Part shown: piece by piece, positions 3,673-19,260 of the stretch
Layout: each line of letters opens with the position of its first letter
Position numbering within the stretch: the stretch's first letter is position 1
Assembly: GCF_001578105.1 (NCBI RefSeq)
Contig: NZ_CP014276.1
Location: forward strand, 1-64,000
DNA: 64,000 nucleotides
Source of the DNA: Martelella sp. AD-3
GTDB lineage: Bacteria; Pseudomonadota; Alphaproteobacteria; Rhizobiales; Rhizobiaceae
Reading direction: 5' to 3'
Translations under genes and position numbers: made by a program
The notes under the pieces: generated by a model
Databases searched by the model: none
The model's input: the letters and a program-made list of their open reading frames with translations, nothing else
Told to the model about the DNA's origin: nothing

Positions 3673-4650
3673 TCACTTGGTCGTGACAGCCTGGACCTTG
3701 TTGACGAGCGTGTCGCCATATTTGTCGGTGAAGGTCTTCCAGACGGGCTTGACGGCCTCCTGGAAGGCCTGACGGTCGACATCGCTGTTGACGACCATGC
3801 CTTCCTTTTCCAGGTCCGCGATCATCGATGCTTCGCTGTCCTTGGAAAGCTGGCGTTCATAGTCGACTGCAACCTTGGCCGCCTTCATGATGATTTCCTG
3901 CTGGTCTTCCGGCAGGCTGGCGAATTTCTTCCCGTTCATCGCCAGCACCAGCGCGGCATAGGAGTGGTTGGTCAGCGACAGGTATTTCTGGACTTCGTAG
4001 AACTTGAAAGACTGCACGATGGTGATCGGGTGATCCTGTGCATCGACAACGCCGGTTTCCAGAGCGGTGTAGAGCTCCGCGACCGGGATCTGCTGCGGAT
4101 TGGCCTTCAGCAGCGCGAACATGTCATTGAGCGCCTCCGAGTTGTTGGTGCGCATGCGCAGGCCTTCAAGATCCTTCGGCTCGACAATCGGGCCGCGGTT
4201 ATTGGTGATTTCGCGGAAACCGTTTTCCGGGAAACCCAGAACCTTGAGATCGAAGTTTTCGAATTCGGCGGCGGCTTCCTGACCGATCGGCCCGTCATAG
4301 ACTTCGTAGGCCTGATCGCGATCGGTGATCATGAACGGCAGCATCAGTCCGCCGAGTTCGGGCATCATGCCGGTGAAATTGTTCAGACCGCTCATGACGA
4401 TGTCGATGATGCCGGAACGCGCGCCGGTGATCATCTGGGAATCGTTGCCGAGCTGGCCCTGCGGAAAGATCTGAACGGTGATCTTGCCGTCGGACATGGT
4501 TTTGACGTCATCGGCAAAGCGCTCGGCAAGCTTCTGCTGCAGGTCGCCTTGCGGCGCAGCATGCGCCAGACGAAGCGTGGTTGCATTCGCCGAGACTGTT
4601 CCTGCAACCAGCATACCAATGGCGAGAAGGCCTGTTGTAAAACGTTTCAT
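3673..4650 (-). CDS. TRAP transporter periplasmic solute-binding protein (DctP family)
   Basis: 325 residues. The signal peptide (1-23) ends AGTVSANA, followed by the mature start TTLRLAHAAP. The conserved segment LEGLRMRTNNS (about 162-171) contains the arginine that in this family salt-bridges the carboxylate of the ligand, so an organic or sugar acid is expected. It is the last gene of a DctQ-DctM-DctP operon transcribed leftward, with a palindromic operator upstream of dctQ that it shares with gluconate/idonate genes. A sugar acid such as gluconate or idonate is therefore a likely ligand (inference). An IS3 remnant touches its 3' end. Confidence 0.9.
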   Translation of the reverse strand: MKRFTTGLLAIGMLVAGTVSANATTLRLAHAAPQGDLQQKLAERFADDVKTMSDGKITVQIFPQGQLGNDSQMITGARSGIIDIVMSGLNNFTGMMPELGGLMLPFMITDRDQAYEVYDGPIGQEAAAEFENFDLKVLGFPENGFREITNNRGPIVEPKDLEGLRMRTNNSEALNDMFALLKANPQQIPVAELYTALETGVVDAQDHPITIVQSFKFYEVQKYLSLTNHSYAALVLAMNGKKFASLPEDQQEIIMKAAKVAVDYERQLSKDSEASMIADLEKEGMVVNSDVDRQAFQEAVKPVWKTFTDKYGDTLVNKVQAVTTK

Positions 4651-4680
4651 TTCATATCCTCCATAGAAAAAATAGTGAAG

Positions 4681-5961: not shown

Positions 5962-6476
5962 TGGGGCGCCTCCTCGGTACCTTCGACATTGCTGGCGAAA
6001 TCGGGCACGGCTCTGCGCGGATCGAGCAGGCGCAACAATGCAATGGCTGCCATCAGCACGCCGCCGACCACGCCTGCGAGATAAAACATGCCGACCGGAA
6101 TACCGCTCATCGGCGATATATTGTCCCAGTTGGCGATGACTTGCGGGACTGCGCCCCAGACCAGCATGACACAGCAGCCGAGGATGACGAGGTTGACGAA
6201 ACGGTGTAGCCAGTATTTTGCCTTGGGGAACATGCCCTCTGCGGCGCCATCCAGTGAGAGGTGTTCAAAGTTGCGCAGGCAAGCCGCCGAGCCGAGCATG
6301 ATGACCCAGACAAACAGGAGCCTTGAGATTTCGACCGAGCCGAGAATGCCGCTGGAAAAGCCGTAACGAAGCACGACATTTGTAAAAACCAGCGCGATCA
6401 TCGCCACGAGCGCGATGGCAATCATCGCGTCAATGATGCGCCAGCCAATGCCGATGATGCGAGTGATCAAACCCAT
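5958..6476 (-). CDS. TRAP transporter small permease (DctQ family)
   Basis: 172 residues with four predicted membrane segments (about 13-35, 48-66, 89-110 and 128-150) and the family pattern SRLLFVWVIMLGSAACLRNFEHLSLD. It is the first gene of the TRAP operon. The start at 6476 follows an AGGTAGC-like sequence. A 20-bp perfect palindrome with the core TGTTATCGATAACA lies 38 bases upstream of the start, where a repressor could block transcription. Confidence 0.9.
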   Translation of the reverse strand: MGLITRIIGIGWRIIDAMIAIALVAMIALVFTNVVLRYGFSSGILGSVEISRLLFVWVIMLGSAACLRNFEHLSLDGAAEGMFPKAKYWLHRFVNLVILGCCVMLVWGAVPQVIANWDNISPMSGIPVGMFYLAGVVGGVLMAAIALLRLLDPRRAVPDFASNVEGTEEAPQ

Positions 6477-6514: not shown

Positions 6515-6534
6515 ATATGTTATCGATAACATAT
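6515..6534. promoter_or_regulatory. Sugar-acid regulon operator, box 1 (TRAP operon)
   Basis: Perfect 20-base palindrome with the core TGTTATCGATAACA at 6518-6531, upstream of the TRAP dctQ gene. The same core recurs at 9329, 14400, 16363 and 18283. It resembles the GntR/IdnR (LacI-family) operators of enterobacteria, whose half site is TGTTA with a CG centre. The proposed binder is the LacI-family protein at 15120-16172 (inference). Confidence 0.75.
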
Positions 6535-6654
6535 ATAAATGCGATAGTCGCGTATTTTCGTCGTCTCGCTTGAATAAAGTTGGGACTTTTACAGGAGCAG
6601 GCGGAAACCCGTCATGGATGCCTATCCAGTCACTAGAGGTCTCGTGGACCAGTT

Positions 6655-6987
6655 TCAGTCCGGCGTGTATTGGTCGCCATCGAACACGTGATGGTGAACG
6701 CGACCGCTGAACATGTCCAGGAGGCCCTTGGTCACTTCACGACCCCTGGTGCGGACATCGGATTCCAGCGCCCTGGCGACAGCTTCGAGGTTGTCGTAGC
6801 GGACACCCATGACGAGCGCATATTCCGGCGCGCCCTTATCGCGTTCGACGCCGAAATAGACCTGCAGGTCCTGTGCGCCGGGAAACTGCCGCCAGATGGG
6901 GATCAGCTTTTCGTGCACATAGGCCTTGAACTCGGCCTCCCGTCCTTCATTGATCGTACCTTCGAAAAGGGCGTAGCGAATGATCAT
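6655..6987 (-). CDS. Small dimeric alpha/beta-barrel (EthD-like) protein
   Basis: About 110 residues, beginning MIIRYALFEGTINEG and containing an HEKLIPIWRQFPG helix and a C-terminal HHHVFDGD strand. This looks like the EthD/ferredoxin-like dimeric alpha-beta barrel group. The start at 6987 is chosen because AGGGAGG lies 5 bases upstream; the ATG one codon earlier (6990) is also possible. It is the last gene of the leftward idnO operon. No enzymatic function can be claimed; similar proteins sit beside sugar-acid and aromatic catabolic genes. Confidence 0.65.
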   Translation of the reverse strand: MIIRYALFEGTINEGREAEFKAYVHEKLIPIWRQFPGAQDLQVYFGVERDKGAPEYALVMGVRYDNLEAVARALESDVRTRGREVTKGLLDMFSGRVHHHVFDGDQYTPD

Positions 6988-7076
6988 CATGTCCTCCCTG
7001 GACAACCGTCACCGGACGGTTTCTCGTTTGCGGCGACGGCGTCATCATGCCTTCGCAGTTAATCAATCCTGCCGGC

Positions 7077-7961
7077 TCACGTGGAGCCGGTGTCGCCATC
7101 AAGCAACCGCATCATCTCGGCCGAATCCTTCGGCCCCAGACCGGCGGCGACAAGCAGGCGGTGAATTTCAGTGACCTGACCGGTCATCGGCAGCGGCGTG
7201 CGGGTCTTCAGCGCAAAAGTCTGCAGGCTGTCGAGATCCTTGAGCATGTTGTCGATGCGACCGGTTGGCGCGTAATCACGGGCGGCGAACTTGCCCATGA
7301 ACTCCTGCATGATGCTGCTGTCGGCCCGTCCGCCCGAGAGCGCCTTCGGAATGCTGGCGGCGTCGACGCCACCGGCTTCCGCCAGCTTGACGGCTTCGGC
7401 GACGGCCTGAAACTGAACGGCACAGAAGAGCTGGTTGATCAGCTTGGTGGTCTGTCCGGCGCCGCTTGGCCCCATCAGAGTGTAGTTGGCGCAGAGATCT
7501 GCCATGACGGCGCGCGCCCTCTCGAAGTCTTCCTTCGTGCCGCCCGCCATCACCGTCAGCCGTCCGCCCAGTGCACCCGGCGCGCCGCCGGAAAGCGGGC
7601 AGTCGACCCAGCCCATTCCGGTTGCCGAGAGAAGCTCAACCGACATTTCGGCCGTCGCCTTCGGGTCGATCGACGACATGTCGATCAGAAGCTTGTCAGC
7701 ACTGGCGGCTTCTGCGACGCCGTTCTTGCCAAACACCACAGCCCTGACGATATCGGCATGGTTCAGGCTCATGATGGTGAAATCAGAGCCAGCCGTGGCC
7801 GCTTTCGGGCTTGCGGCGGCGCTGGCGCCCTTTTCAACCAGTTTGGCGACCTTTGTGTCGTCAAGATCGGAAACGATGACTTTGTGGCCCGTCTCCAGAA
7901 GACGTGTCGCGATCGCGGTGCCCATAATGCCCGCGCCGATGATGGCGATCTGTTCAGTCAT
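7077..7961 (-). CDS. 3-hydroxyisobutyrate dehydrogenase-family oxidoreductase (GarR-like)
   Basis: 294 residues of the beta-hydroxyacid dehydrogenase family. The N-terminal Rossmann motif is IGAGIMGTAIATRL, the substrate-binding motif DCPLSGGAPGALGGRL lies near residue 120, and the catalytic lysine sits in GAGQTTKLINQL near residue 170. Family members reduce tartronate semialdehyde or oxidise 3-hydroxy acids with NAD(P). It overlaps the gluconokinase gene by 8 bases in the idnO operon, so a role in sugar-acid breakdown is likely. The closest known activity would be 2-hydroxy-3-oxopropionate reductase, but the substrate is not proven. Confidence 0.85.
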   Translation of the reverse strand: MTEQIAIIGAGIMGTAIATRLLETGHKVIVSDLDDTKVAKLVEKGASAAASPKAATAGSDFTIMSLNHADIVRAVVFGKNGVAEAASADKLLIDMSSIDPKATAEMSVELLSATGMGWVDCPLSGGAPGALGGRLTVMAGGTKEDFERARAVMADLCANYTLMGPSGAGQTTKLINQLFCAVQFQAVAEAVKLAEAGGVDAASIPKALSGGRADSSIMQEFMGKFAARDYAPTGRIDNMLKDLDSLQTFALKTRTPLPMTGQVTEIHRLLVAAGLGPKDSAEMMRLLDGDTGST

Positions 7962-8469
7962 TTTCGGCTCCTTGTCCCGCTCCCAGAAAGGCGAGAGATT
8001 TCTCGGTGATGATGGCTGGCGACAGGTCGCAATCGAGCGTCAGAACGTCGCCCTCACCATCCGTGGCTTCCAGCGTTGCAAGCTGACTGTCAAGCAGCGA
8101 GACCGGCATGTAGTGGCCGGGACGGTTCGCCATCCGCGCGGCAAGCACCGCGCGCTCGCCTTTCAGGTGAATGAAACGCAGCTCCGGGCCGGCCAGATAG
8201 CGCAGCAGATCACGATAGCTCTTCTTCAGGGCCGAGCAGGAGACGATCACACCTTCATTGCGCGGCGCCTCCGCGAGCGTCCTGCCAATCACGTCGAGCC
8301 ACGGCATGCGGCCTTCATCGCCAAGAGGAATGCCGACGCGCATCTTTTCCACATTGGTTTCAGGGTGCAGGTTGTCGCCCTCGACGAAGCGCGCGCCGAG
8401 CTTTTCCGCCAGCGCACGGGCTGCGGACGACTTTCCGCAGCCGCTGACACCCATGACCACGATTTTCAT
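7954..8469 (-). CDS. gntK: Gluconokinase
   Basis: 171 residues, normal for the small GntK-type kinase. It has a P-loop GVSGCGKSS at residues 7-15, the family signature EGDNLHPETNVEKM, then GIPLGDEGRMPWL, VSCSALKKSYRDLLR and the NRPGHYMPVSLLDSQ lid region. It phosphorylates D-gluconate to 6-phosphogluconate with ATP in the cytoplasm. ATG 8469 immediately follows the idnO stop codon; a GTG at 8478 inside idnO is an alternative start. The gene order idnO-gntK-dehydrogenase and the upstream palindrome fit an idonate/gluconate operon. Confidence 0.92.
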   Translation of the reverse strand: MKIVVMGVSGCGKSSAARALAEKLGARFVEGDNLHPETNVEKMRVGIPLGDEGRMPWLDVIGRTLAEAPRNEGVIVSCSALKKSYRDLLRYLAGPELRFIHLKGERAVLAARMANRPGHYMPVSLLDSQLATLEATDGEGDVLTLDCDLSPAIITEKSLAFLGAGQGAEND

Positions 8470-8470
8470 C

Positions 8471-9235
8471 TCAGACACTCACGGTGATGCCGCCATCAAC
8501 AGCCAGCACGTGGCCATTGATGAAGGAGGAGGCGGGCGATGCAAGGAAGACGGCGGCGCCGACGAGTTCGTCGACATCGCCCCAGCGACCGGCAGGGGTG
8601 CGCTTTTCAAGCCAGGCGGAAAATTCCGGATTGTCGACCAGCGCCTGGTTGAGCGGCGTCTTGAAATAGCCCGGCGCAATGCCGTTGATCTGCAGGCCAT
8701 ACTTGGCCCAGTCCGTGCACATGCCGCGGGTCAGATTGCGGACCGCGCCCTTGGTCGCGGTGTAGGGCGCGATGCCGGGGCGGGCCAGCTCGCTCTGCAC
8801 CGAGCAGATATTGATGATCTTGCCGCGGCCGCGCTTGATCATGTGGCGGGCAACCGCCTGACCGGTGAAGAAGACGCCGGAAATATTGGTTTCCAGTAGG
8901 CGGTGCCATTGTTCTTCCGGATAGTCTTCCAGCGGCGTGCGGTACTGGATGCCGGCATTGTTGATCAGGATCTCGATCGGACCGACCTCGGCCTCAGTCT
9001 GGTTCACGCCGGCTTCGACAGCCGATTTATCGGTAACATCAAAGACCGCGGAATACGCCTTGATGCCCTTGTCTTCGAAGGCCTTGACGGCGGCTTTCGC
9101 GTGATCCGTGCTGCGGGCATTGACGACAGGTATAGCGCCCTCTTCGGCGAGTCCTGAAATCAGTGCATGACCGATTCCCTGGCTGGAGCCCGTTACAAGT
9201 GCGATCTTTCCGTTCAGCTTGAACCTGTCGGACAT
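8471..9235 (-). CDS. idnO: Gluconate 5-dehydrogenase (5-ketogluconate reductase), SDR family
   Basis: 254-residue short-chain dehydrogenase. The cofactor motif is TGSSQGIG (15-22), then NNAG (92-95) and the catalytic Ser145, Tyr158 and Lys162 (in PYTATKGAV). The C-terminus ends VDGGITVSV. It resembles IdnO/Gno proteins, which interconvert 5-keto-D-gluconate and D-gluconate. The start at 9235 is set by AAGGAG 7 bases upstream. It is the first gene of the operon idnO-gntK-dehydrogenase-EthD-like and faces idnD across a shared palindrome at 9329. IdnO's substrate is the product of IdnD, which supports the assignment. Confidence 0.88.
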   Translation of the reverse strand: MSDRFKLNGKIALVTGSSQGIGHALISGLAEEGAIPVVNARSTDHAKAAVKAFEDKGIKAYSAVFDVTDKSAVEAGVNQTEAEVGPIEILINNAGIQYRTPLEDYPEEQWHRLLETNISGVFFTGQAVARHMIKRGRGKIINICSVQSELARPGIAPYTATKGAVRNLTRGMCTDWAKYGLQINGIAPGYFKTPLNQALVDNPEFSAWLEKRTPAGRWGDVDELVGAAVFLASPASSFINGHVLAVDGGITVSV

Positions 9236-9328
9236 GGTGTTCTCCTTCCCTGTGGGCGACGCGATGGGGCGAGGCTTAAGCCTCGGCGCCGAATTCCCAG
9301 CGCCGTCTCCGAATGTTCTTGACTTATC

Positions 9329-9342
9329 TGTTATCGATAACA
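9329..9342. promoter_or_regulatory. Sugar-acid regulon operator, box 2 (idnO/idnD divergent promoter)
   Basis: Perfect 14-base palindrome TGTTATCGATAACA, 94 bases upstream of idnO and 122 bases upstream of idnD, so one site could control both directions. Confidence 0.78.
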
Positions 9343-9463
9343 TAATCAAGACCAAAATCGGTTCTTGAACAAATTCGTCGCGGCAACCGAACGAGAGGCC
9401 GTAAGGGTCCGGACACATGCTTTCCGTTGTTGCGCGGAGCGAAGCTTACCAAGGGAGGTAGCG

Positions 9464-10498
9464 ATGAAAGCTGCAATCATTCACGCGGCAAAGGATCTGC
9501 GCATAGAAGACATCGAAGCCGAGACCGCCGGTCCCGGTCAGCTGGAAATCCGCATCAGAGCGGGCGGCATTTGCGGTTCTGATCTGCATTATTACAATCA
9601 TGGCGGTTTCGGCGATGTGCGCATTCGTGAGCCGATGATCCTCGGTCATGAAGTCGCCGGCACGATCGCCGCGCTTGGCAGCGGCGTCAGCAATTTCGCC
9701 GTCGGTGACCGTGTGGCGATCTCGCCGTCCCGGCCCTGCAACACATGCGAATATTGCCTGAAGGGGCTGCAGAACCACTGCCTCAACATGCGGTTCTACG
9801 GCAGCGCCATGCCGATGCCGCATATTCAGGGCGCTTTCCGTGAAACCCTGGTGGCCGAAGCCTGGCAGTGCCACAAGGTCGCAGACAACGTGTCGTTTGG
9901 CGAGGCCGCCATGGCCGAACCGCTGGCCGTGACGTTGCATGCGGTTTCGCGCGCCGGCTCGCTTCTTGGCAAGCGGGTTCTGGTCTCCGGCTGCGGTCCC
10001 ATCGGCGCGCTCTGCATTGTTGCCGCCCGCGCTCATGGCGCGCGCGAGATCGTGGTCACGGATGTGATGGACGACGTTTTGCCCTACGCGGAAGCCGTCG
10101 GCGCAAACCGTGTCATCAACGTTGCGCAGAAACCTGAGGACCTCGCGGCCTATGCTGACGGCAAGGGCAAATTCGATGTGATGTTCGAAGCCTCCGGCAA
10201 TGCCCGAGCGCTCGCAACCGGCCTACAGACGCTGGCGCCGCGCGGCATTCTGGTTCAACTGGGCCTCGGGGGCGAGGTCGGGCTGCCCCAGAACATGGTG
10301 GTTTCCAAGGAAATCGATATCCGCGGCTCGTTCCGCTTCCATCGGGAATATGGCCTTGCGGTCGATCTTCTCAATCAGGGTCGGATCGACGTCAAGCCGT
10401 TGATTTCCGGCACCTACCCGCTGGCCGATGCCGTTGCCGCCTTCGACGCCGCCAGCGATCGGTCAAAATCGATGAAGGTTCAATTGGCCTTTGGATAG
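9464..10498 (+). CDS. idnD: L-idonate 5-dehydrogenase (zinc-dependent MDR family)
   Basis: 344 residues of the zinc alcohol dehydrogenase superfamily. Catalytic zinc ligands are Cys37 (GGICGSDLHYY), His62 and Glu63 (GHE); structural zinc ligands are Cys92, Cys95, Cys98 and Cys106. The Rossmann motif is SGCGPIGALC. HYYNHGGFGDVRIREPMILGH is characteristic of IdnD. It oxidises L-idonate to 5-ketogluconate with NAD(P)+. ATG 9464 has GGGAGG 7 bases upstream. It is divergent from idnO and followed by a strong bidirectional terminator. Confidence 0.88.
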   Translation: MKAAIIHAAKDLRIEDIEAETAGPGQLEIRIRAGGICGSDLHYYNHGGFGDVRIREPMILGHEVAGTIAALGSGVSNFAVGDRVAISPSRPCNTCEYCLKGLQNHCLNMRFYGSAMPMPHIQGAFRETLVAEAWQCHKVADNVSFGEAAMAEPLAVTLHAVSRAGSLLGKRVLVSGCGPIGALCIVAARAHGAREIVVTDVMDDVLPYAEAVGANRVINVAQKPEDLAAYADGKGKFDVMFEASGNARALATGLQTLAPRGILVQLGLGGEVGLPQNMVVSKEIDIRGSFRFHREYGLAVDLLNQGRIDVKPLISGTYPLADAVAAFDAASDRSKSMKVQLAFG

Positions 10499-10545
10499 GC
10501 GCAGGCTTCTTGCCGCTGGTGATGCCTGGAAGCAGTATCCAAACA

Positions 10546-10579
10546 CAAAACGCCCCGACCTTGCGGCCGGGGCGTTTTG
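10546..10579. terminator. Bidirectional rho-independent terminator
   Basis: A perfect 12-bp stem (CAAAACGCCCCG with CGGGGCGTTTTG) and a 10-base loop. The stem carries A-rich and T-rich ends, so it can terminate idnD from the left and the converging ABC-transporter operon from the right. Confidence 0.88.
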
Positions 10580-10667
10580 CATGCTGAGAGAGGGCCGATC
10601 TATTTGTTTTACGCAATTCCGGACGGCGAACCGGTGTCCACTTCACCGGGAATTGCTCTGGTGAGAC

Positions 10668-11771
10668 TTACTGGACGCCCCAGATCTTCTTGTATTCGTC
10701 GCGGTAGCCATTGCCCGGATCGAATGTGTTGTCGGGACCGCCGTCATATTCGACATTGTCCTTGGTCACGACGTGGAACGGTGCGATATAGCCGGACCAG
10801 TCCTGACCCGCGAGCGCGCGGTTCATCTCGTCGACAAGCTGCCAGCCCTGAAGGTAGAGCGGCTCTGCGACCGTAACGGCCTGATACTGGCCGGCGCGGA
10901 TGCGCTGATAGGCGCTTTCCGAACCGTCGCCGGCGGCGACATTGACCGGCGCGCCATCACCCGGCAAACCGGCAGCGGCCAGCGACGGACCCATGAAGTC
11001 GAAATAGAGGTCGTTGATCGCCAGCGAATGGGTCCATTTGTCTCCGTATTTCTGCAGCAGCGACGTGGTGAGCTGCGGCATGCGCTGGGATGTTTCGGCA
11101 ATCGGCGTATCGACATATTCGAGCACCGTGCCACCAAGATCTTCGATCTGTTTCTTCATCGCGTCGGCCTTGGCAATGGCGATGGCATAGGTCGAGTCGG
11201 TGAAGATGATGACGCCAGGCTTGCCATCGGCGTCAACATAGGCCCAGTCGGCCGCCGCTTTCGAAACCTTCATCGGATCGGTCGTCACATTGGTGAAGAT
11301 GCCGATATCCGGCTCGGGGCCGGCGGCAGGTGCTGCGTGCCAGGCGACCATCGGAATACCAGCGTCCTTGGCCTGCTGCATGGCCGGGCCCTGTTCGACG
11401 GCATCAAAACCGTTGATTATGATGCCATCGGGCTTGAGCGCCATGGCTTGCCCGAAAGCGGCCGTGCGTCCGGCAATCGAGCCGGCGCCGTCGAGTGTCG
11501 TGACTTTCCAGCCGACCGCCTTGGCCGCTTCATCAATGCCATCGACCACCTTCAGGATGCCGCCATTCTTCATGTCTGCGGCCAGCACCACGATCGACTT
11601 GCCGGATTCGGCCTTCGGGCCGCTTGTCGGCCCATCCCAGGTCGTCACCTGCGATGCATATTTGTCGACGAAGGCTTTCGCGTCGGACATGGCATCGGCA
11701 AGGGCCGGCCCTGCCAGCGCCAGCATGGCGACTCCGCCGGCGAGCGTTTGAATGAATGTTCTGCGTTTCAT
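10668..11771 (-). CDS. Ribose-type sugar ABC transporter substrate-binding protein
   Basis: About 367 residues of the periplasmic binding protein 4 (RbsB-like) group. The N-terminus MKRRTFIQTLAGG followed by a hydrophobic stretch and ALADA looks like a Tat-type or Sec signal peptide. The body contains the two-lobe pattern (SIVVLAADMKNGG, GIIINGFDAVEQ, PGVIIFTD). Start 11771 is taken because GGGAGGAGAAG lies just upstream. It is the last gene of a leftward ATPase-permease-binding-protein operon with operator box 3, suggesting that the ligand is a sugar or sugar acid feeding the gluconate pathway. Confidence 0.88.
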   Translation of the reverse strand: MKRRTFIQTLAGGVAMLALAGPALADAMSDAKAFVDKYASQVTTWDGPTSGPKAESGKSIVVLAADMKNGGILKVVDGIDEAAKAVGWKVTTLDGAGSIAGRTAAFGQAMALKPDGIIINGFDAVEQGPAMQQAKDAGIPMVAWHAAPAAGPEPDIGIFTNVTTDPMKVSKAAADWAYVDADGKPGVIIFTDSTYAIAIAKADAMKKQIEDLGGTVLEYVDTPIAETSQRMPQLTTSLLQKYGDKWTHSLAINDLYFDFMGPSLAAAGLPGDGAPVNVAAGDGSESAYQRIRAGQYQAVTVAEPLYLQGWQLVDEMNRALAGQDWSGYIAPFHVVTKDNVEYDGGPDNTFDPGNGYRDEYKKIWGVQ

Positions 11772-11816
11772 GTCTTCTCCTCCCGTTAAAAACAAGACTT
11801 CCGCTTTCGCGAAAGC

Positions 11817-12854
11817 CTATTTGCGCGCGGCGCGTTTGGTGTCGGCGCCGCGTTTGCGCTGGGCGTAACCCGCAATGCCGATTGCCACCAGAAGCGTCAC
11901 GCCGTTGAACAGCGGTTCGACAAAGAACGATCCGCCGAATTGCTGGATGCCGGAGATACCGACCGCCAGAATGATCACGCCAACCACCGTGCCCCAGACA
12001 TTGACGCGGCCGGGCTTGATGGTTGTTGACCCGAGAAATGCGCCGACAAGGGCCGGGAGAAGATACTCAAGCCCGACACTGGCCTGTCCGATCCTCAGCT
12101 TCGAGGCCAGCAGCACGCCGGCGAGCGCCGACAGAAAACCCGAACTGATGAAGGCGCCGACAACGAATTTGCGCACCGGAATACCGTTCAGCGCCGCCGC
12201 CTTCGGGTTCGCCCCAATGGCATAGAGATAGCGGCCGATCGGCAGGTATTCGAGCGTGATCCACATGATCAGCGCAATCGCAAGCACGTAGAAACCGGTG
12301 ATCGGCAGTCCGAAAACCATGGTGCCATTCAGGTCGTAAAACCCTTGCGGAAGCACGCCCACAACCTGGCGTCCGCCGGTATGCCAGAGCGCGATGGCAT
12401 AAAGCACCGTTCCCGTACCGAGCGTCGCAATGAAGGCATCGATCTTGGCGACTTCGACGAGGAAACCGTTGATCAGGCCCGTCAGAGAGCCGAGCGAAAG
12501 CACGATCAGCACCGCGACCGGCCACGGAATGCCGAACACGGTTTGCAGGCTGATGGCCAGAATATGCCAAAGCACAATGCCGTAACCGACCGTCAGGTCG
12601 ATGCGGCCCGCCGCCATCGGGATCATCGCGGCGAGCGACAGGATCGCAATGATCGCCTTGTCGGAAATGATCGAGCGAACATTGAGCAACGTCGGAAAGG
12701 TATTCGGCAGCATGACCGAAAACAGAATGATCAGCAGCGCGGTCAGGATCACCAGGCCATAGACGGGCAGGAACCGCGCGATCCGCTGCAACAGGGAAAG
12801 CCCCTTGAGTTCCGCTCTGGTCGGTTCCAGAGCGGTTGATTCCAGTGATTGCAT
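11817..12854 (-). CDS. Ribose-type sugar ABC transporter permease
   Basis: 345 residues, the usual size for RbsC/AraH-type permeases, with 8-10 hydrophobic segments. Family strings include AGRIDLTVGYGI, LTGLINGFLVEVAKIDAFIATLGT and LPALVGAFLGSTTIKPGRVNVWGT. GGGAG lies 6 bases before ATG 12854. A basic C-terminal tail (QRKRGADTKRAARK) follows the last membrane segment. It is co-transcribed with the ATPase upstream and the binding protein downstream. Confidence 0.9.
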   Translation of the reverse strand: MQSLESTALEPTRAELKGLSLLQRIARFLPVYGLVILTALLIILFSVMLPNTFPTLLNVRSIISDKAIIAILSLAAMIPMAAGRIDLTVGYGIVLWHILAISLQTVFGIPWPVAVLIVLSLGSLTGLINGFLVEVAKIDAFIATLGTGTVLYAIALWHTGGRQVVGVLPQGFYDLNGTMVFGLPITGFYVLAIALIMWITLEYLPIGRYLYAIGANPKAAALNGIPVRKFVVGAFISSGFLSALAGVLLASKLRIGQASVGLEYLLPALVGAFLGSTTIKPGRVNVWGTVVGVIILAVGISGIQQFGGSFFVEPLFNGVTLLVAIGIAGYAQRKRGADTKRAARK

Positions 12855-12867
12855 GTTTTTCTCCCGT

Positions 12868-14364
12868 TCAGGCCGCTTCGGAAGCGGAGGCCGCTGTGAT
12901 CAGCGCCTGTGTCGTCAGTTGATCGCCCTCCAGGGCGCGCACGATTTGGCCGCGCGAAAACACCAGGGCGCGGTTGCAGATATTGGCGACTTCCTCGAAA
13001 TCCGTGGACACCACGACGACAGCAAGCCCGGCATCCACCGCGCGCGCGATCAACCGGTAGATTTCCGCCTTGGCGCCGACATCGACGCCCGCTGTCGGGT
13101 CCTCGGCAATCAAAAGCTTGCGTCCGGTCGCCAGCCAGCGGCCAACGACAACCTTCTGCTGGTTGCCGCCCGATAGCGCCTCGACCGCGATTTCCGGGTC
13201 ATTGGGCCGCAAACCGACGCTGTCGCCTATGGTCGAGGACAGGGCGGCCTCACTCTTGTGGGTGAGGAAGTTGAAAAGGCTGCGGCCGATAGCAGAAGGA
13301 TTGAGAAACATGTTTTCCCGCACCGAAAGCGACATGGCCACCGATTCCTCCGCCCGGTCACGGGCGATCAGGCCGATCCCCGCCCGCATGGCGGATCGCG
13401 GTGAGGAAAGGTCCGGTGTCCCGCCATTCAGCGTGATCTCGCCGGAAAAGGCGACCGAACCGAAAAGCGCACGTCCGACGGCTTCCTGACCGGCGCCGCG
13501 CAGACCGACAAGCCCAAGCAGTTCGCCTTTATGGATATCCATCGAAACCGGACCGACGCCGGGGCAGCAAAGACCGGAGATGCTTGCGACACATTCTCCT
13601 TGCTCGACGGTGCCCTTGGCGAAAAGCTCATCGGTCTTGCGGCCGACGATCATCTCGACAAGTTCGCTCGGCGTGGTATCGCTAACGGCCGTTTCGCCGA
13701 CAAGCTTGCCGTCGCGCAAAACCGCAACGCGGTCGGCAATGCGGAAGATTTCATCGAGCCGGTGGGAAACATAGATCATGCCGACGCCGTGATCCTTCAA
13801 CGGACGGATGGCATCGAAAAGCCGCTCCACCTCGTCGGCCGGCAGGCTGGCGGTCGGCTCATCAAGCACCAGAACATCGGCATCGGTGGCAAGCGCGCGG
13901 GCAATCGCAACCAGTGCCTTTTCTGTTCTGGTCAGACTTGAAATCCGCGTCTGCGGGTCGAAATCGCAACCGACCAGTTTCAGCGCCTCGGCGGCACGCT
14001 CATCGGTGGATGACCAGTCGATCAGGCCGGAGCGCAGCGAAAAGCCCTGCGCCAGCCCGACATTTTCGCCAACGGTCATCCATTCGATCAGGCCCATGTC
14101 CTGATGAATGAAGGCCACCGGCTGGCGCTGCAGCGGTTTTGGCGGACGGTGCACATAGGGCTCGCCGCGAAACAGGATTTCGCCGCTATCCGGTTTGTGA
14201 ATGCCGGCAAGCGTCTTGATGAGCGTCGATTTTCCGGCGCCATTTTCACCGAGCAGCGCCAGAATCTCCCCCGGGCGCAGCTCAAGCGAGACATCGGACA
14301 GCGCCTGCGTACCGCCAAAGACCTTTGTAATCGCGCGAAATGACACGAGGCTTTTATCATTCAT
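12868..14364 (-). CDS. Ribose-type sugar ABC transporter ATP-binding protein (two nucleotide-binding domains)
   Basis: 498 residues in the fused RbsA/MglA form. The first domain has Walker A GENGAGKSTLIK and Walker B VLVLDEPTASLP; its signature loop is degenerate (ISSLTRTEKALVAIARAL). The second domain has the diverged Walker A usual for this family (VGLRGAGQEAVGRALFG), the signature ALSGGNQQKVVVGRWL and LIAEDPTAGVDVGAK. GGAGG lies 8 bases before ATG 14364. It is the first gene of the operon, and operator box 3 lies 36 bases upstream. Confidence 0.92.
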   Translation of the reverse strand: MNDKSLVSFRAITKVFGGTQALSDVSLELRPGEILALLGENGAGKSTLIKTLAGIHKPDSGEILFRGEPYVHRPPKPLQRQPVAFIHQDMGLIEWMTVGENVGLAQGFSLRSGLIDWSSTDERAAEALKLVGCDFDPQTRISSLTRTEKALVAIARALATDADVLVLDEPTASLPADEVERLFDAIRPLKDHGVGMIYVSHRLDEIFRIADRVAVLRDGKLVGETAVSDTTPSELVEMIVGRKTDELFAKGTVEQGECVASISGLCCPGVGPVSMDIHKGELLGLVGLRGAGQEAVGRALFGSVAFSGEITLNGGTPDLSSPRSAMRAGIGLIARDRAEESVAMSLSVRENMFLNPSAIGRSLFNFLTHKSEAALSSTIGDSVGLRPNDPEIAVEALSGGNQQKVVVGRWLATGRKLLIAEDPTAGVDVGAKAEIYRLIARAVDAGLAVVVVSTDFEEVANICNRALVFSRGQIVRALEGDQLTTQALITAASASEAA

Positions 14365-14399
14365 CGAGCATTCCTCCCGAACTCTCGAAGCTGATCAAC

Positions 14400-14413
14400 T
14401 GTTATCGATAACA
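14400..14413. promoter_or_regulatory. Sugar-acid regulon operator, box 3 (sugar ABC operon)
   Basis: Perfect palindrome TGTTATCGATAACA just upstream of the ABC ATPase start at 14364. This is the position expected for a repressor site overlapping the promoter. Confidence 0.75.
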
Positions 14414-14665
14414 TAAACGGGTGTCAAGGCGGAAAATGATGAATGGGGCCTGATGTCGATTTTCACGCGTCATGCGGTTTCAACAGGCGTTTCGGAAACC
14501 ATAGAGTCCGATTTTCTGCGCAGATGTGCCGAACAGTGGCACGCAGACGCCCGTCCTCTGGCCGAGGCGCTTTTGTCGATGCCTTTCGAAAATCCCCTTG
14601 CGCAATGGCATCGTTACGAAGGGCCCCGCCGCGGCGGCATGGCGGCAGGCGAGGCCCGGCGACGG

Positions 14666-15085
14666 TCAGATCTTGTCGGCGCCTATGGCTTCAAGAGCGG
14701 CGGTAGCGACTTCGACATCCTGTTCGCCCGTTCCGGAGCCGATGCCGATGGCGCCGGCCAGCAGGCCATCGAAGCGGATCGGAAACCCGCCCTTGAGGTT
14801 GATCACGTCGCCATCCGTGGCAATCGCTGCGGCAGCGGCAAATTCCGGCGCCATGTGGCCCGTCGCGGTGTTGAGCGACGCAGCGGTGATGGCCTTTGCC
14901 CGTGCGGTCTTCATCGAGGTGAACTTCGCACCGTCCATGCGGAAGACGGCCAGCGTCACGCCGCTTTGATCGACAATGACCACATTCTGCGGGACGCTGA
15001 TCTCTTCCGCCTTGGCAATGGCGGCCGTCAGAGCTGTCATCACGCCCTTATGGCTGAGGGCGGTGGCGGGGCGGGTATTGGTCAA
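14666..15085 (-). CDS. GlcG/HbpS-family (DUF336) heme-binding-like protein
   Basis: 139 residues spanning the whole domain: VVIVDQSGVTLAVFRMDGA, ARAKAITAASLNT, then GGFPIRFDGLLAGAIGIGSG with the conserved EQDVEVATAAL helix. Proteins of this family accompany glycolate, propanediol and sugar-acid catabolic genes; some bind heme or cobalamin-related ligands. It lies just downstream of the LacI regulator (35 bases), so the two are probably co-transcribed. Its role in this regulon is unknown. Confidence 0.8.
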   Translation of the reverse strand: MTNTRPATALSHKGVMTALTAAIAKAEEISVPQNVVIVDQSGVTLAVFRMDGAKFTSMKTARAKAITAASLNTATGHMAPEFAAAAAIATDGDVINLKGGFPIRFDGLLAGAIGIGSGTGEQDVEVATAALEAIGADKI

Positions 15086-15119
15086 CTTGAATTCCTTTTC
15101 TTGGCTTTCGGCAAAACGG

Positions 15120-16172
15120 TCATGTGCTTTCGCGCAGAAGCACCTGGTAGGGCGTCAGAATCAGTTCGTCCCCGCCTGGGTCGTCGCCCCCCAGTTCGCG
15201 CAGTAATTTCTGGGCGGCAAAGCGCCCGATATCGCGACAACCGACATTTACCGTGGAAATGCGCGGATGGCAGAAGGCGGAAATCTCGTAATCGCCAAAA
15301 CCGGCGATCGCAATATCGTCCGGCACCTTGATGCCGCGTCGCTGGCATTCCATCAAGGCGCCGAAGGCAGAAAGGTCGGAGACGCAGATCACCGCCTCTG
15401 TATCCGGCCAGCGTTCAAGCATCGAAACGATGGCCTGCGCGCCCTGTTCGATCGAAATTGGCGGTACGCCGAAAGAGATCATCCGTCCGGGTTCAAGACC
15501 CAGCTCCTTGATTGCATTGAGAAAGCCCGACCGGCGTATGTTGCCGCGCGTATCGCGGGTTGTTGTGCCGCCGATATAGCCAAACTTCCGGTACCCCTTG
15601 GCAGCAAGCGCCTTCACCATGTCGCTCATCACCGCGCTGTTGGAAAAACCGACTACGCTGTCGATCGGGTCTTCGGGGATTTCCCAGGTCTCGATCACCG
15701 GAATGCCTGAATTGACGAGCATGCGTCTGGCGCTGGGCGTATGCGTGCTGTCAGTCAGGATAATGCCTTCCGGTCGGCGCTGCAGCATGGACTGGATCAA
15801 CTGCTCTTCTTTTTTCTCGGAATAGTCTGTGTAACCCAGCAGAAGCTGCAGACCCGAACCTTCAAGCGCTTCGGTAATGCCGCGCGCTGTTTCAGAGAAG
15901 TTCGAATTGTTGATCGATGGCACAAGCGCGGCCACAAAACCGGTCTTGCGCGAGGAGAGAGAGCCGGCCGACTGATCGAGAACATAGCCAAGCTGATCGA
16001 CGGCGGCGAGAATACGTTGCCGTGTTTCCTTCGAGACATGGCTGTCTTTTTTCAACGCCCGAGAGACTGTCATCGTTGAAACGCCGGATAGCCGTGCGAC
16101 ATCCGCCATGGTTGGCGCGCTTTGCGGGCGCTGCGGATTACTCTGGCTTTTTTTCGTTTTGCCTGGTGCCAA
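15120..16172 (-). CDS. LacI-family transcriptional regulator of the sugar-acid regulon
   Basis: About 350 residues. A short basic leader (KTKKSQSNPQRPQ) precedes the helix-turn-helix (TMADVARLSGVSTMTVSRAL) and hinge helix, then a periplasmic-binding-type effector domain (GFVAALVPSINNSNFSE through FGDYEISAFCHPRISTVNV). Its length and domain order match GntR/IdnR-type LacI regulators. The start is uncertain: no good ATG exists, so TTG 16172 with GGGGA upstream is chosen; ATG 16109 would cut into the helix-turn-helix. Five matching palindromes in the neighbourhood are its likely targets. GlcG-like follows it. Confidence 0.85.
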   Translation of the reverse strand: MAPGKTKKSQSNPQRPQSAPTMADVARLSGVSTMTVSRALKKDSHVSKETRQRILAAVDQLGYVLDQSAGSLSSRKTGFVAALVPSINNSNFSETARGITEALEGSGLQLLLGYTDYSEKKEEQLIQSMLQRRPEGIILTDSTHTPSARRMLVNSGIPVIETWEIPEDPIDSVVGFSNSAVMSDMVKALAAKGYRKFGYIGGTTTRDTRGNIRRSGFLNAIKELGLEPGRMISFGVPPISIEQGAQAIVSMLERWPDTEAVICVSDLSAFGALMECQRRGIKVPDDIAIAGFGDYEISAFCHPRISTVNVGCRDIGRFAAQKLLRELGGDDPGGDELILTPYQVLLREST

Positions 16173-16362
16173 TTTCAGTCCCCGTCGAACGGTCCTCCTG
16201 CCCTCCAGCCAGAAAATCGGTCGCCGACCGCTCAGGTCTTTCTCTGGTCCCGGCAATGGGCAGGTGTCAATATTGCGTGTTCTCTTCCCCCAGAAGTTGT
16301 CGAATCCTTTTGTTCGGCATTCGCAGCTTGACAGGGCTTGGTCTTGACGTCCATAACACATC

Positions 16363-16376
16363 TGTTATCGATATCA
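16363..16376. promoter_or_regulatory. Sugar-acid regulon operator, box 4 (gluconolactonase-like gene / regulator)
   Basis: TGTTATCGATATCA, one base off the perfect palindrome. It lies 49 bases before the SMP-30 gene start and about 190 bases upstream of the divergent LacI gene. Confidence 0.65.
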
Positions 16377-16425
16377 TAGACGTTTCTCGCAGTCGCGTCG
16401 GGAATGCAGCTTTTGGGAGGGAGCC

Positions 16426-17352
16426 ATGTTCGGAATTTTGGAGGGAAGCGGCTTCGAAGTGCTCGATCCGCGCTTTGAAACGTGTTTCGTCGGCCATGCG
16501 CGGGTGGAGCGGCTTTGGACCGGAGGCCGTTGGCTGGAAGGGCCTGCGTGGTTTGCTCCGGGCCGGTTTGTGCTGTTTTCCGACATCCCCAACAACCGGA
16601 TGATGCGTTTCGACGAGGCGAGCGGCGAGACCTGCGTTTTTCGTCAACCGTCGAACAACAGCAATGGCAATACGGTCGACCAATTCGGCCGTCTCGTCAC
16701 CTGCGAACACCTTTCCAGGCGTGTTACGTGCACGGAGTTTAACGGTGAGATCCGAGTGATTGCCGATCGCTATGATGGCAAGAGGTTGAACTCTCCCAAT
16801 GATGTTGTGGTCAAATCCGATGGCACGATCTGGTTTACAGATCCCTCTTACGGGATCATGCATGATTACGAGGGCGATTATGGCGAACAGGAAATCGCCG
16901 GTTGCCATGTCTATTGCGTCGATCCCGAGACAGGGCGGACAAGTCGCGTTGCCGACGATTTCGAGAAGCCGAACGGGCTTGCATTTTCGCCCGACGAAGG
17001 CCTGCTCTATATTGCCGATACCGGCGCTACCCATCTGGAGGGCGGACCGCGCCATATCCGCAAGTTTCGTGTCGGTGATGAAAATGAACTCGCGGACCTT
17101 GGGATTTTCGCCACCTGCACAAACGGACTGTTCGACGGTTTCCGTGTTGATCGCAGCGGCAGGATCTGGACCAGTGCGGCCGATGGCGTCCACTGCTACG
17201 ATCCCGACGGAACCCTGATCGGCAAGTTGCATCTGCCGGAAACCGTTTCAAATCTCACCTTTGGCGGCGCAAAGCGCAACCGGTTGTTCATCACCGCAAC
17301 GACCTCGCTTTATGCGGTCTATGTCACCGCCAATGGCAGCAAACTGGGATAA
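16426..17352 (+). CDS. SMP-30/gluconolactonase-family lactonase
   Basis: 308 residues of the six-bladed SGL beta-propeller. Metal-site strings are visible: WLEGPAWFAPGRFVLFSDI (conserved Glu), then NNSNGNTVDQFGRLVTCEH, LNSPNDVVVKSDGTIWFTD (Asn), KPNGLAFSPDEGLLYIADT (Asn) and NGLFDGFRVD (Asp). These enzymes open sugar-acid lactones, for example gluconolactone to gluconate. GGGAGG lies 5 bases before the ATG. It heads the rightward unit with two dehydrogenases and has operator box 4 in its promoter region. Confidence 0.88.
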   Translation: MFGILEGSGFEVLDPRFETCFVGHARVERLWTGGRWLEGPAWFAPGRFVLFSDIPNNRMMRFDEASGETCVFRQPSNNSNGNTVDQFGRLVTCEHLSRRVTCTEFNGEIRVIADRYDGKRLNSPNDVVVKSDGTIWFTDPSYGIMHDYEGDYGEQEIAGCHVYCVDPETGRTSRVADDFEKPNGLAFSPDEGLLYIADTGATHLEGGPRHIRKFRVGDENELADLGIFATCTNGLFDGFRVDRSGRIWTSAADGVHCYDPDGTLIGKLHLPETVSNLTFGGAKRNRLFITATTSLYAVYVTANGSKLG

Positions 17353-17359
17353 GGCAAGC

Positions 17360-18232
17360 ATGAAAATCGCATTTCTGGGGACCGGGTTGATGGGCGCGCC
17401 GATGGCGCTGAACCTTATCAAGGCAGGCTTTTCCCTTACCGTCTGGAACCGAAGCCCGGGAAAGACTGCCGCACTCGAAAAGGCGGGGGCGTCCGTCGCC
17501 GAAACGCCTGCCGCCGCGGTGATCGGCGCCGATGTCGTGATCACCATGATCTCGGATGGTCCGGCCGTCGCCGACCTTCTGTTCACGCAGGGTGTGGCCG
17601 AGAAAATCCCGGCCGGTGCGATCGTTATCGACATGAGTTCGATCAAGCCGGGAGAGGCGCGCGACCACGCCGGGCGGCTGGCGGAAATCGGCGTCAGCCA
17701 TATCGACGCGCCGGTCAGCGGCGGAACGCGCGGCGCCGAGGCGGGACGTTTGGCGATCATGGCCGGTGGCGACGAGGCCGCGTTCGCACGGGTCGCCACC
17801 GTTTTTGAGCCAATGGGAAACGCGATCCTGCTTGGGCCCTCCGGCAGCGGGCAACTGGCCAAGCTCGCCAATCAGGCGATTGTCGCCATCACCATCGGCG
17901 CGGTGGCCGAGGCAACGCTTCTGGTCCGCGAAGGCGGTGTGGATCCGGCGCGTTTCCGAGCCGTGCTTCAGGGCGGTTTCGCCGATTCCGTCATCCTGCA
18001 GCAGCACGGCGCCCGCATGCAATCGGGCGATTTCACCCCCGGCGGACGCTCCGCCTTTCAACTGAAGGACCTGGAAAATGTGCTGGCGGAATGCCGCGTG
18101 ATGGGGCTTTCCCTGCCCCTGACGATGCTGCAGCGCGATCGCTTCGCCGATCTTGTGATCCGGCTTGAGGGCGGTGATCTGGACCATTCAGCACTGTTTC
18201 TTGAACTGCTCGACTGCAACAACCTGTCCTGA
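17360..18232 (+). CDS. 3-hydroxyisobutyrate dehydrogenase-family oxidoreductase (second paralogue)
   Basis: 290 residues. The Rossmann motif is FLGTGLMGAPMALNLIKAG, the substrate motif DAPVSGGTRGAEAGRL lies near residue 118, and the catalytic lysine is in GQLAKLANQAIV near residue 170. It differs clearly from the paralogue at 7077-7961, so the two probably act on different hydroxy acids. It starts 7 bases after the lactonase stop with AAGGCAAG as ribosome-binding site, so the two are one transcript. A terminator-like hairpin follows. Confidence 0.87.
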   Translation: MKIAFLGTGLMGAPMALNLIKAGFSLTVWNRSPGKTAALEKAGASVAETPAAAVIGADVVITMISDGPAVADLLFTQGVAEKIPAGAIVIDMSSIKPGEARDHAGRLAEIGVSHIDAPVSGGTRGAEAGRLAIMAGGDEAAFARVATVFEPMGNAILLGPSGSGQLAKLANQAIVAITIGAVAEATLLVREGGVDPARFRAVLQGGFADSVILQQHGARMQSGDFTPGGRSAFQLKDLENVLAECRVMGLSLPLTMLQRDRFADLVIRLEGGDLDHSALFLELLDCNNLS

Positions 18233-18239
18233 ATTCGAG

Positions 18240-18269
18240 AGCCGCCGGCACGTAAGCAGCGGCTTTTTT
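18240..18269 (+). terminator. Rho-independent terminator
   Basis: AGCCGC pairs with GCGGCT across a 13-base loop and is followed by six T residues. It lies 8 bases after the dehydrogenase stop and before operator box 5, so it separates the two rightward units. Confidence 0.6.
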
Positions 18270-18282
18270 GTTTACAACCGAA

Positions 18283-18296
18283 TGATATCGATAACA
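18283..18296. promoter_or_regulatory. Sugar-acid regulon operator, box 5 (2-hydroxyacid dehydrogenase)
   Basis: TGATATCGATAACA, one base from the perfect palindrome, 16 bases before the ATG at 18313. It follows a terminator, suggesting that this gene has its own regulated promoter, although no clear -35/-10 pair stands out. Confidence 0.62.
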
Positions 18297-18312: not shown

Positions 18313-19260
18313 ATGACGAAAGTTGAAATTCTGCAGATCGGTCCTTATCCGAGCTGGGATGACGAGCGGCTGAACGCGCATTTCACCATGCATCGCCTGT
18401 TCGAAGCGGCCGACAAAGAGGCCTTTATCAAGGCGCATGCAGCCAATATCCGGGGCATTGCAACGCGCGGCGAACTGGGCGCGAACCGGGCGCTGATCGA
18501 GGCGCTTCCGGCGCTGGAAATCATCAGCGTTTATGGCGTCGGCTATGATGCCGTCGATCTTGATGCCGCGCGCGAACGCGGTATCCGCGTCACCAACACG
18601 CCGGACGTGCTGACCAAGGACGTCGCCGATCTGGGCGTTGCGATGATGATGTGTCAGTCACGCGGTATGGTCGGGGCCGAAGCCTGGGCCAGAAGCGGCA
18701 ACTGGGCCTCGAAGGGGCTTTATCCGCTGATGCATCGCGTTCACGGAAAGCGCGTCGGTATTCTCGGCCTTGGCCGCATCGGCTATGAGGTCGGCCGCCG
18801 GCTCGCCGGTTTCGACATGCAAATCTCCTACAGTGATGTTGCCGCAAAGGACTATGCGCCCGACTGGACCTTTGTCGAAAGTGCCGAAAAACTTGCCGAA
18901 GGCTCTGACTTCCTGTTCGTGACGCTGGCGGCTTCGGCAGCGACCCGCCACATCGTCGGCAAATCGGTCATTGAGGCGCTTGGGCCCGAAGGCATGCTGA
19001 TCAACATTTCCCGCGCATCGAATATCGATGAAGAGGCGCTTCTCGATGCGCTTGAAGGCGGCAAGCTCGGCTCGGCGGCACTCGATGTGTTCGACGGCGA
19101 ACCGAACATCAATCCGCGCTTCCTTGCGCTCGAAAACGTCCTCCTGCAGCCGCACCATGCCTCCGGCACCTATGAAACGCGCAAGGCCATGGGCAAGCTG
19201 GTCTTCGACAATCTCGAGGCGCAATTCTCCGGCAAAGCGCTGCCGACATCGGTGCTGTAA
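18313..19260 (+). CDS. D-isomer-specific 2-hydroxyacid dehydrogenase
   Basis: 315 residues of the GhrB/TkrA-like group, NAD(P)-dependent reductases of glyoxylate, hydroxypyruvate and 2-ketogluconate. The nucleotide motif is GILGLGRIGYEVGRRL (near 154), the catalytic Arg is in LINISRASNIDE, the Glu in DVFDGEPNIN, and the active-site His in LQPHHASGTYETR. GGAGG lies 7 bases before ATG 18313. Its operator and neighbours make 2-ketogluconate (to gluconate) an attractive substrate, but glyoxylate/hydroxypyruvate reductase activity is equally compatible. Confidence 0.87.
   Translation: MTKVEILQIGPYPSWDDERLNAHFTMHRLFEAADKEAFIKAHAANIRGIATRGELGANRALIEALPALEIISVYGVGYDAVDLDAARERGIRVTNTPDVLTKDVADLGVAMMMCQSRGMVGAEAWARSGNWASKGLYPLMHRVHGKRVGILGLGRIGYEVGRRLAGFDMQISYSDVAAKDYAPDWTFVESAEKLAEGSDFLFVTLAASAATRHIVGKSVIEALGPEGMLINISRASNIDEEALLDALEGGKLGSAALDVFDGEPNINPRFLALENVLLQPHHASGTYETRKAMGKLVFDNLEAQFSGKALPTSVL

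What the first reader, a model, noticed from the sequence alone, without database searches (positions are those of the whole stretch)
6515..18296. Five copies of a TGTTATCGATAACA palindrome define a local sugar-acid regulon
Seen: perfect or one-off copies at 6518, 9329, 14400, 16363 and 18283, each upstream of a different transcription unit (TRAP operon, idnO/idnD divergent promoter, ribose-type ABC operon, lactonase gene, 2-hydroxyacid dehydrogenase), and none found elsewhere in the window. Known: enterobacterial GntR and IdnR, LacI-family proteins, bind very similar palindromes and control gluconate and idonate genes. Inference: the LacI-family protein at 15120-16172 is the cognate regulator and the effector is a gluconate or idonate derivative. 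Box 1 extends to a 20-bp perfect palindrome, suggesting the tightest control is on uptake.
Basis: partly seen in the sequence, partly recalled or inferred. Interest (0 to 1): 0.75.

Follow-up and report, generated by a model that had tools for sequence, protein, structure and literature searches.

The report
LacI-type regulon for sugar-acid breakdown
Five near-identical DNA boxes mark the switches of one local set of genes for taking up and breaking down sugar acids, very probably controlled by the neighbouring LacI-type regulator; it is a clear, conserved example of a familiar kind of bacterial gene control.

Summary
Five copies of TGTTATCGATAACA (three exact, two with one mismatch) lie at the stated places and are the only sites with at most one mismatch in the 5.04-Mb genome, against about 0.12 expected. 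In aligned promoters of relatives the box keeps 12-14 of 14 columns invariant; flanks are 32-67% identical. Boxes go with the LacI protein: in the genus, 5 of 5 genomes with a close ortholog have 4-5 boxes, 8 of 8 without have none. The same genes and boxes occur on Rhizobium plasmids. Five boxes serve seven predicted promoters, the regulator's own among them. The enzymes fit 2-keto-L-gulonate -> L-idonate -> 5-ketogluconate -> gluconate -> 6-phosphogluconate. I read it as an autoregulated repressor induced by a pathway metabolite; binding, mode and effector are not shown. The regulator belongs to an alpha-/betaproteobacterial clade apart from enterobacterial GntR/IdnR, though the operator is one base from the E. 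coli gntKU site. The idea that box 1 means tightest control of uptake is not supported. New member of a known kind.

The parts
6515..6534 (.). Operator box 1 (core 6518-6531), 20-bp perfect palindrome, upstream of dctQ-dctM-dctP
9329..9342 (.). Operator box 2 between divergent idnO and idnD, overlapping a promoter-like TTGACT-16-CATAAT (9319-9346, + strand)
14400..14413 (.). Operator box 3, 35 bases before the ABC ATPase gene
16363..16376 (.). Operator box 4 (one mismatch) between divergent lacI and lactonase genes
18283..18296 (.). Operator box 5 (one mismatch), 16 bases before the ATG of the 2-hydroxyacid dehydrogenase
15120..16172 (-). LacI-family regulator, predicted cognate repressor (start codon uncertain: the frame is open up to 16361)
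3673..6476 (-). TRAP transporter dctQ (5958-6476), dctM (4681-5961), dctP (3673-4650); permeases nearest YiaM/YiaN (2,3-diketo-L-gulonate), below equivalog cut-offs
8471..9238 (-). IdnO-like SDR (5-keto-D-gluconate reductase), 53% to E. coli IdnO
7954..8478 (-). gluconokinase (GntK/IdnK type), 42-46% to E. coli
7077..7961 (-). beta-hydroxyacid dehydrogenase tsr1, same operon, exact step unknown
6655..7005 (-). small EthD-like protein (weak match), last gene of the idnO operon
9464..10498 (+). IdnD-like L-idonate 5-dehydrogenase, 41% to E. coli IdnD
10668..14364 (-). ribose-type ABC transporter: ATPase 12868-14364, permease 11817-12854, binding protein 10668-11795
14666..15085 (-). HbpS/GlcG-like protein downstream of lacI
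16426..17352 (+). SMP-30/gluconolactonase-like lactonase
17354..18232 (+). second beta-hydroxyacid dehydrogenase (tsr2), follows the lactonase
18313..19260 (+). D-2-hydroxyacid dehydrogenase (dhD), full-length match to K. vulgare 2-hydroxyacid dehydrogenase 4LSW (E 1.5e-153); probable 2-ketoaldonate (2-keto-L-gulonate) reductase

Best explanation
The five boxes are operators of the LacI-family protein encoded at 15120-16172. A dimer binds each 14-bp palindrome. Without inducer it represses seven predicted promoters: dctQMP, idnO-gntK-tsr1-ethD, idnD, the ABC operon, its own gene with the HbpS-like gene, lactonase-tsr2, and the 2-hydroxyacid dehydrogenase. An incoming sugar acid or a pathway intermediate releases it. 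The genes take up sugar acids by TRAP and ABC transporters, open lactones, and run 2-keto-L-gulonate -> L-idonate -> 5-keto-D-gluconate -> D-gluconate -> 6-phosphogluconate. Shown by computation: the sites, their conservation, their exclusivity in this genome and their linkage to this regulator. Inferred: binding, repression rather than activation, and the enzyme steps. Effector identity is open.
For: Only five sites with at most 1 mismatch in the genome, all here, against about 0.12 expected. Promoter alignments: box invariant in 14 of 14 columns in four promoters and 12 of 14 in the lacI-lactonase one; other intergenic columns 32-67% identical; no other 14-column window in any of the five alignments is as conserved. 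Genus: 5 of 5 genomes with an ortholog of at least 84% (own included) have 4-5 boxes, 8 of 8 others have 0; over 151 genomes, 16 of 16 with a LacI match of at least 50% identity have a box (59 sites, reversed-pattern control 5) against 30 of 135 others (38 sites, control 30, so near background) (site totals also, control totals counted). Rhizobium-type loci, boxes up to 2 mismatches: before lacI in 13 of 13, lactonase 12 of 12, idnO 10 of 10, rbsA 11 of 11, dhD 11 of 11. S. meliloti pSymA has the enzyme operon, with neither lacI ortholog nor box in the 23 kb examined. Recognition-helix core MTVSR is shared with E. coli GntR and IdnR, while the two paralogs next in score to the IdnR model read ITVSR and ATVSR. 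E. coli gntKU site one base away. Box 2 overlaps a 10-of-12 promoter match.
Against: No binding or expression data. The promoter scan as a whole finds no more promoter-like sites than shuffles (3 against 3.6). E. coli IdnR is annotated as a dual regulator, so activation is not excluded. In ten deeper loci a box precedes lacI in only 2 of 10, lactonase in 3 of 8 and idnD in 4 of 9. There not all sites are local: in G029, 4 of 6 sites lie outside the cluster (not examined), and in G113, 3 of 6 lie on other contigs, one beside an rbsA homolog and one (L122) beside no mapped gene. G078 has boxes before the same enzyme genes, but no ortholog of at least 50% was found in that fragmented assembly. 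In five loci from four other genomes a second LacI-type protein (about 30%) sits beside a boxed transporter-like gene. NCBIfam GntR and IdnR cut-offs are not met. The 50% cut was set after seeing the counts and phylogeny was not corrected for. Another paralog of this genome, L107, reads MTASR.
Confidence: 0.85

Rival explanations
1. The boxes are operators, but another LacI-family paralog in the genome is the main binder, alone or together with this one, as GntR and IdnR share operators in E. coli.
For: The genome has 37 stretches matching the IdnR model, with C1:2895281 (206.6 bits) close behind the window protein (208.6 bits); a looser palindrome TGCTATCGCTAGCA lies about 8 kb from that paralog. 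In other genomes a second LacI-type protein lies beside boxed transporter-like genes. PMC4052901 says GntR recognises IdnR sites in E. coli (passages).
Against: The 8 genus genomes lacking this ortholog each have 13 scored LacI-family matches but no box. The two next-scoring paralogs differ from this protein at the recognition helix (ITVSR, ATVSR), and 18-19 kb around each holds no box at up to 2 mismatches. A box lies in this regulator's own promoter region.
Confidence: 0.08
2. The regulator activates rather than represses, or does both, at these sites.
For: E. coli IdnR is annotated as a dual regulator.
Against: Boxes end 16-49 bases before the start codon at four units, and box 2 overlaps a predicted promoter, which suits repression.
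Confidence: 0.15
3. The boxes are an unrelated repeat, for example a mobile-element or structural repeat, not regulator sites.
For: Transposase frames lie nearby (11-1033, 2618-3676).
Against: All five lie between genes before relevant units, none elsewhere in the genome at up to 1 mismatch, and they are conserved against diverged flanks while gene order changes between relatives.
Confidence: 0.01

Closest known systems
E. coli GntR (LacI family) and the gntKU operator
   Same: Same kind of palindrome: a site TGTTATCGGTAACA before gntK, one base different; same recognition-helix core MTVSR; controls a gluconokinase gene.
   Different: 35% protein identity; separate clade; equivalog cut-off not met (190 against 433 bits); regulon here includes TRAP and ABC transporters, a lactonase and a probable ketoaldonate reductase.
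E. coli IdnR with idnDOTR and idnK
   Same: Same three enzyme steps IdnD, IdnO and kinase (41%, 53% and 42% identity) under a local LacI-family regulator.
   Different: 33% regulator identity, 209 against 500 bits; no IdnT found among the mapped genes; idnD and idnO divergent here; extra genes.
Pseudomonas GntR (LacI type)
   Same: Best NCBIfam match of the regulator (295.6 bits).
   Different: Below its cut-off of 400 bits; the motif footprinted in P. plecoglossicida is AG-N2-AGCGCT-N-TCT (PMC12195362, passages).
Fungal D-glucuronate pathway, gluD-gluE cluster
   Same: [quoted passage not shown] PMC6353982 passages).
   Different: Eukaryotic; no LacI-type regulator (my general knowledge).

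Membership tests
LacI-family transcription regulator | N-terminal LacI helix-turn-helix plus periplasmic-binding-protein-like domain | tested here: met
   PF00356 and PF13377 above cut-offs
LacI-family transcription regulator | CG-centred palindromic operator (feature recalled) | tested here: met
   binding itself not shown
LacI-family transcription regulator | DNA binding changed by a small effector | not testable with these tools
   needs protein
GntR/IdnR equivalogs | score above the NCBIfam equivalog cut-off | tested here: not met
   209 of 500 (IdnR), 190 of 433 (E. coli GntR), 295.6 of 400 (Pseudomonas GntR). The IdnR cut-off was reached in none of the 14 control genomes either, E. coli included, so for IdnR this is a weak test
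GntR/IdnR equivalogs | groups with E. coli GntR/IdnR in a tree | tested here: not met
   E. coli and Pasteurellaceae rows form a separate starred clade of four; several paralog branches are long
Idn (L-idonate) catabolic gene set | idnD, idnO and gluconokinase genes together | tested here: met
   homology and linkage; IdnD and gluconate 5-dehydrogenase equivalog cut-offs not met
Idn (L-idonate) catabolic gene set | enzymes act on L-idonate and 5-ketogluconate | not testable with these tools
   needs assay

The most novel reading that the evidence does not exclude
The regulator defines its own alpha-/betaproteobacterial group that senses a ketoaldonate or L-idonate (2-keto-L-gulonate branch, from vitamin C or uronate breakdown) rather than gluconate. 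Its regulon works as a module in which interchangeable transporters each come with the operator. Within the group, operator specificity has shifted from TGTTATCGATAACA in rhizobia to AG(A/T)TA(C/T)CGGTA(A/T)CT in Variovorax.
Probability: 0.4. Interest if true: 0.5.

Novelty: new member of a known kind. Interest (0 to 1): 0.35.

Why it matters
It assigns a likely function to a regulator and about 15 genes that recur, in varying order, in Martelella and on Rhizobium plasmids. It predicts a testable carbon source (L-idonate, 5-ketogluconate or 2-keto-L-gulonate) for these bacteria. Its relatives offer a natural series for studying how LacI-type operators drift while the gene set largely stays.

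Tried and rejected
Genome-wide extra sites: three 2-mismatch sites and two sites of the looser pattern lie in or beside genes without evident link to sugar acids; not counted as members. Box 1 as strongest operator: the outer symmetry is kept in L003 but lost in L002 and L089; rejected as an argument. Ligand by solved binding proteins: the ABC binding protein has only weak PDB matches (4 at E below 1e-4, best 3.4e-6); the TRAP one matches 76 sequences, those shown (60) mostly named only as TRAP/DctP or sialic-acid binding; no ligand inferred. Literature: the exact 14-mer occurs in one held paper, on Lactobacillus crispatus glycogen genes, seen only in the listing. Of nine other searches, three listed the LacI review PMC4052901, which I read in passages; its table counts 7 gluconate/idonate LacI groups. 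Its supplements could not be read, so I cannot say this regulon is unlisted there. PMC5507952 passages did not describe this regulon. The FAH-like gene at 1543-2313 was considered as part of the TRAP operon; a transposase frame separates them and it was not found in L002; left out.
Full report
Observation. One search finds the palindrome exactly at 6518, 9329 and 14400 and with one mismatch at 16363 and 18283. At up to three mismatches there are 7 matches in the window against 0.73 expected. In the whole genome (3 contigs, 5,036,008 bases; the window is the first 64 kb of contig C2, 314,776 bases) these five are the only places with at most one mismatch; a dinucleotide model expects 0.11-0.13. 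The three 2-mismatch places are elsewhere: two in coding DNA and one between an FCD-type regulator frame and an ABC ATPase frame (read by eye). A looser pattern finds two further places and is at the level of its reversed control (7 against 6).

Layout. Bases between box and start codon: dctQ 41, idnO 90, idnD 121, ABC ATPase 35, lactonase 49, lacI 190 (start codon uncertain), 2-hydroxyacid dehydrogenase (dhD) 16. Boxes 2 and 4 lie between divergent genes, so five boxes serve seven predicted units, among them the regulator's own. Operons are inferred from gene spacing. Box 2 overlaps the best of three promoter matches of the region (TTGACT-16-CATAAT, 10 of 12), although the scan as a whole gave no more than shuffles (3 against 3.6).

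Conservation. The closest named relatives are Martelella. For each of five promoters I aligned the window with relatives that have the gene (7, 6, 7, 6 and 3 rows in all). The box was invariant in 14 of 14 columns in four promoters and 12 of 14 in the lacI-lactonase one, where L082 carries the mirrored variant. Other intergenic columns were 60%, 32%, 46%, 50% and 67% identical to the window. No other 14-column window reached the box's conservation in any of the five.

Linkage to the regulator. In 13 genomes of the genus (own included) the 5 with a close LacI ortholog (84-100%) have 4-5 boxes, all on one contig, and the 8 without have none. Over 151 genomes, all 16 whose best LacI match is at least 50% identical have at least one box (59 sites; reversed-pattern control 5), against 30 of the other 135 (38 sites; control 30, about background) (site totals, control totals counted). 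The 50% cut was chosen after seeing the data and relatedness was not corrected for. G078 carries boxes before idnO/dhD, the lactonase and rbsA on short contigs, without a close ortholog found in that assembly. The reverse case: S. meliloti pSymA has dhD-idnD-idnO-gntK-tsr1-ethD in a row with neither a lacI ortholog nor a box in the 23 kb read (one locus; the rest of that genome was not searched).

Distribution. I mapped window genes on 30 of the loci then held and counted 29 of them (L086, a continuation of L085, was left out; genes near locus ends and weak matches were not counted; boxes up to 2 mismatches; some loci may be near-identical strains). In 13 Rhizobium-type loci, including R. etli p42c and R. 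ruizarguesonis pRlX4, a box lies before lacI in 13 of 13, lactonase 12 of 12, idnO 10 of 10, rbsA 11 of 11 and dhD 11 of 11; idnD follows dhD there and has no box of its own (0 of 11). In five Martelella-type loci and G073: lacI 6 of 6, dhD 6 of 6, idnO 6 of 6, rbsA 5 of 5, lactonase 5 of 5, dctQ 2 of 2, idnD 5 of 6. In ten deeper loci: rbsA 5 of 5, idnO 7 of 9, dhD 5 of 6, dctQ 1 of 1, idnD 4 of 9, but lacI only 2 of 10 and lactonase 3 of 8; in G029 and G113 some sites lie outside the cluster (4 of 6 and 3 of 6). tsr1, an internal operon gene, has none (0 of 22 counts, one gene split in L003 counted twice). The transporters come and go: L001, L004 and L005 show ABC only in the stretch read, L002 TRAP only, the window, L003 and L089 both; each of these has its own box. 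L003 has split genes and may carry sequencing errors.

Regulator. Pfam shows a standard LacI-family protein. NCBIfam ranks Pseudomonas GntR, IdnR and E. coli GntR first, all below cut-off (the IdnR cut-off was not reached in any control genome either). It is 35% identical to E. coli GntR and 33% to IdnR. In a tree of 40 rows chosen by me it falls with Martelella and Rhizobium proteins inside an alpha-/betaproteobacterial group, apart from the E. coli/Pasteurellaceae group (several paralog branches are long). Its recognition helix keeps the MTVSR of E. coli GntR and IdnR; the next two paralogs of this genome by IdnR score have ITVSR and ATVSR, another (L107) MTASR.

Pathway. IdnO, IdnD and the kinase are 53%, 41% and 42-46% identical to E. 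coli enzymes. The 2-hydroxyacid dehydrogenase matches PDB 4LSW over its full length, without gaps, at E 1.5e-153; PMC6827314 (passages) names 4LSW as K. vulgare 2DH and reports that this enzyme can reduce 2-keto-L-gulonate to L-idonate, noting broad substrate ranges in the family. The TRAP permeases resemble the 2,3-diketo-L-gulonate system YiaMN, below cut-off. The set therefore reads as 2-keto-L-gulonate -> L-idonate -> 5-ketogluconate -> gluconate -> 6-phosphogluconate, the order known from the fungal D-glucuronate pathway (PMC6353982 passages; PMC5306355 abstract). Substrates and effector are inferred. The roles of the two beta-hydroxyacid dehydrogenases, the EthD-like and the HbpS-like proteins are not explained.

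Operator drift. Of 20 Variovorax loci (regulators 54-58% identical) none has the rhizobial box at up to one mismatch, but 13 of 20 hold AG(A/T)TA(C/T)CGGTA(A/T)CT-type sites, against 0 of 20 for the reversed pattern. The pattern was derived from these same loci, so this is not an independent test. In the four Variovorax loci mapped, the sites lie before lactonase/lacI or idnO/dhD. Their regulators read SKMTVSR and have F where rhizobial ones have L in the hinge segment. This suggests the same regulon with a shifted operator; it is a lead.

Verdict. The finding is correct and well supported: a local, conserved, probably autoregulated LacI-type regulon for ketoaldonate/L-idonate/gluconate catabolism. 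It is a new member of a known kind. Whether RegPrecise (recalled) or the LacI review's supplement already lists it could not be checked.

Noticed in passing
L127 (S. meliloti pSymA 264787-287731): The same enzyme operon dhD-idnD-idnO-gntK-tsr1-ethD occurs without the LacI regulator or its box in the 23 kb read, so it is probably controlled otherwise there.
   Followed up: partly
L015-L032, L036, L051: Variovorax orthologs have a shifted palindrome AG(A/T)TA(C/T)CGGTA(A/T)CT in 13 of 20 loci.
   Followed up: partly
L084, L085, L089, L118, L123: A second LacI-type protein (about 30% identity) sits beside a transporter-like gene with a similar box, a possible GntR/IdnR-like pair.
   Followed up: partly
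window 2618-3676: A transposase-like frame abuts the dctP stop codon, separating the TRAP operon from an FAH-like gene at 1543-2313 (transposase judged by eye).
   Followed up: no
window 11-1033 and L097 4759-5799: The transposase-like frame at the start of the window has what looks like another copy on the chromosome (same opening protein sequence).
   Followed up: no
window 23579-30403: A 2274-aa glycine-rich repetitive protein that looks like an autotransporter (judged by eye from the translation).
   Followed up: no
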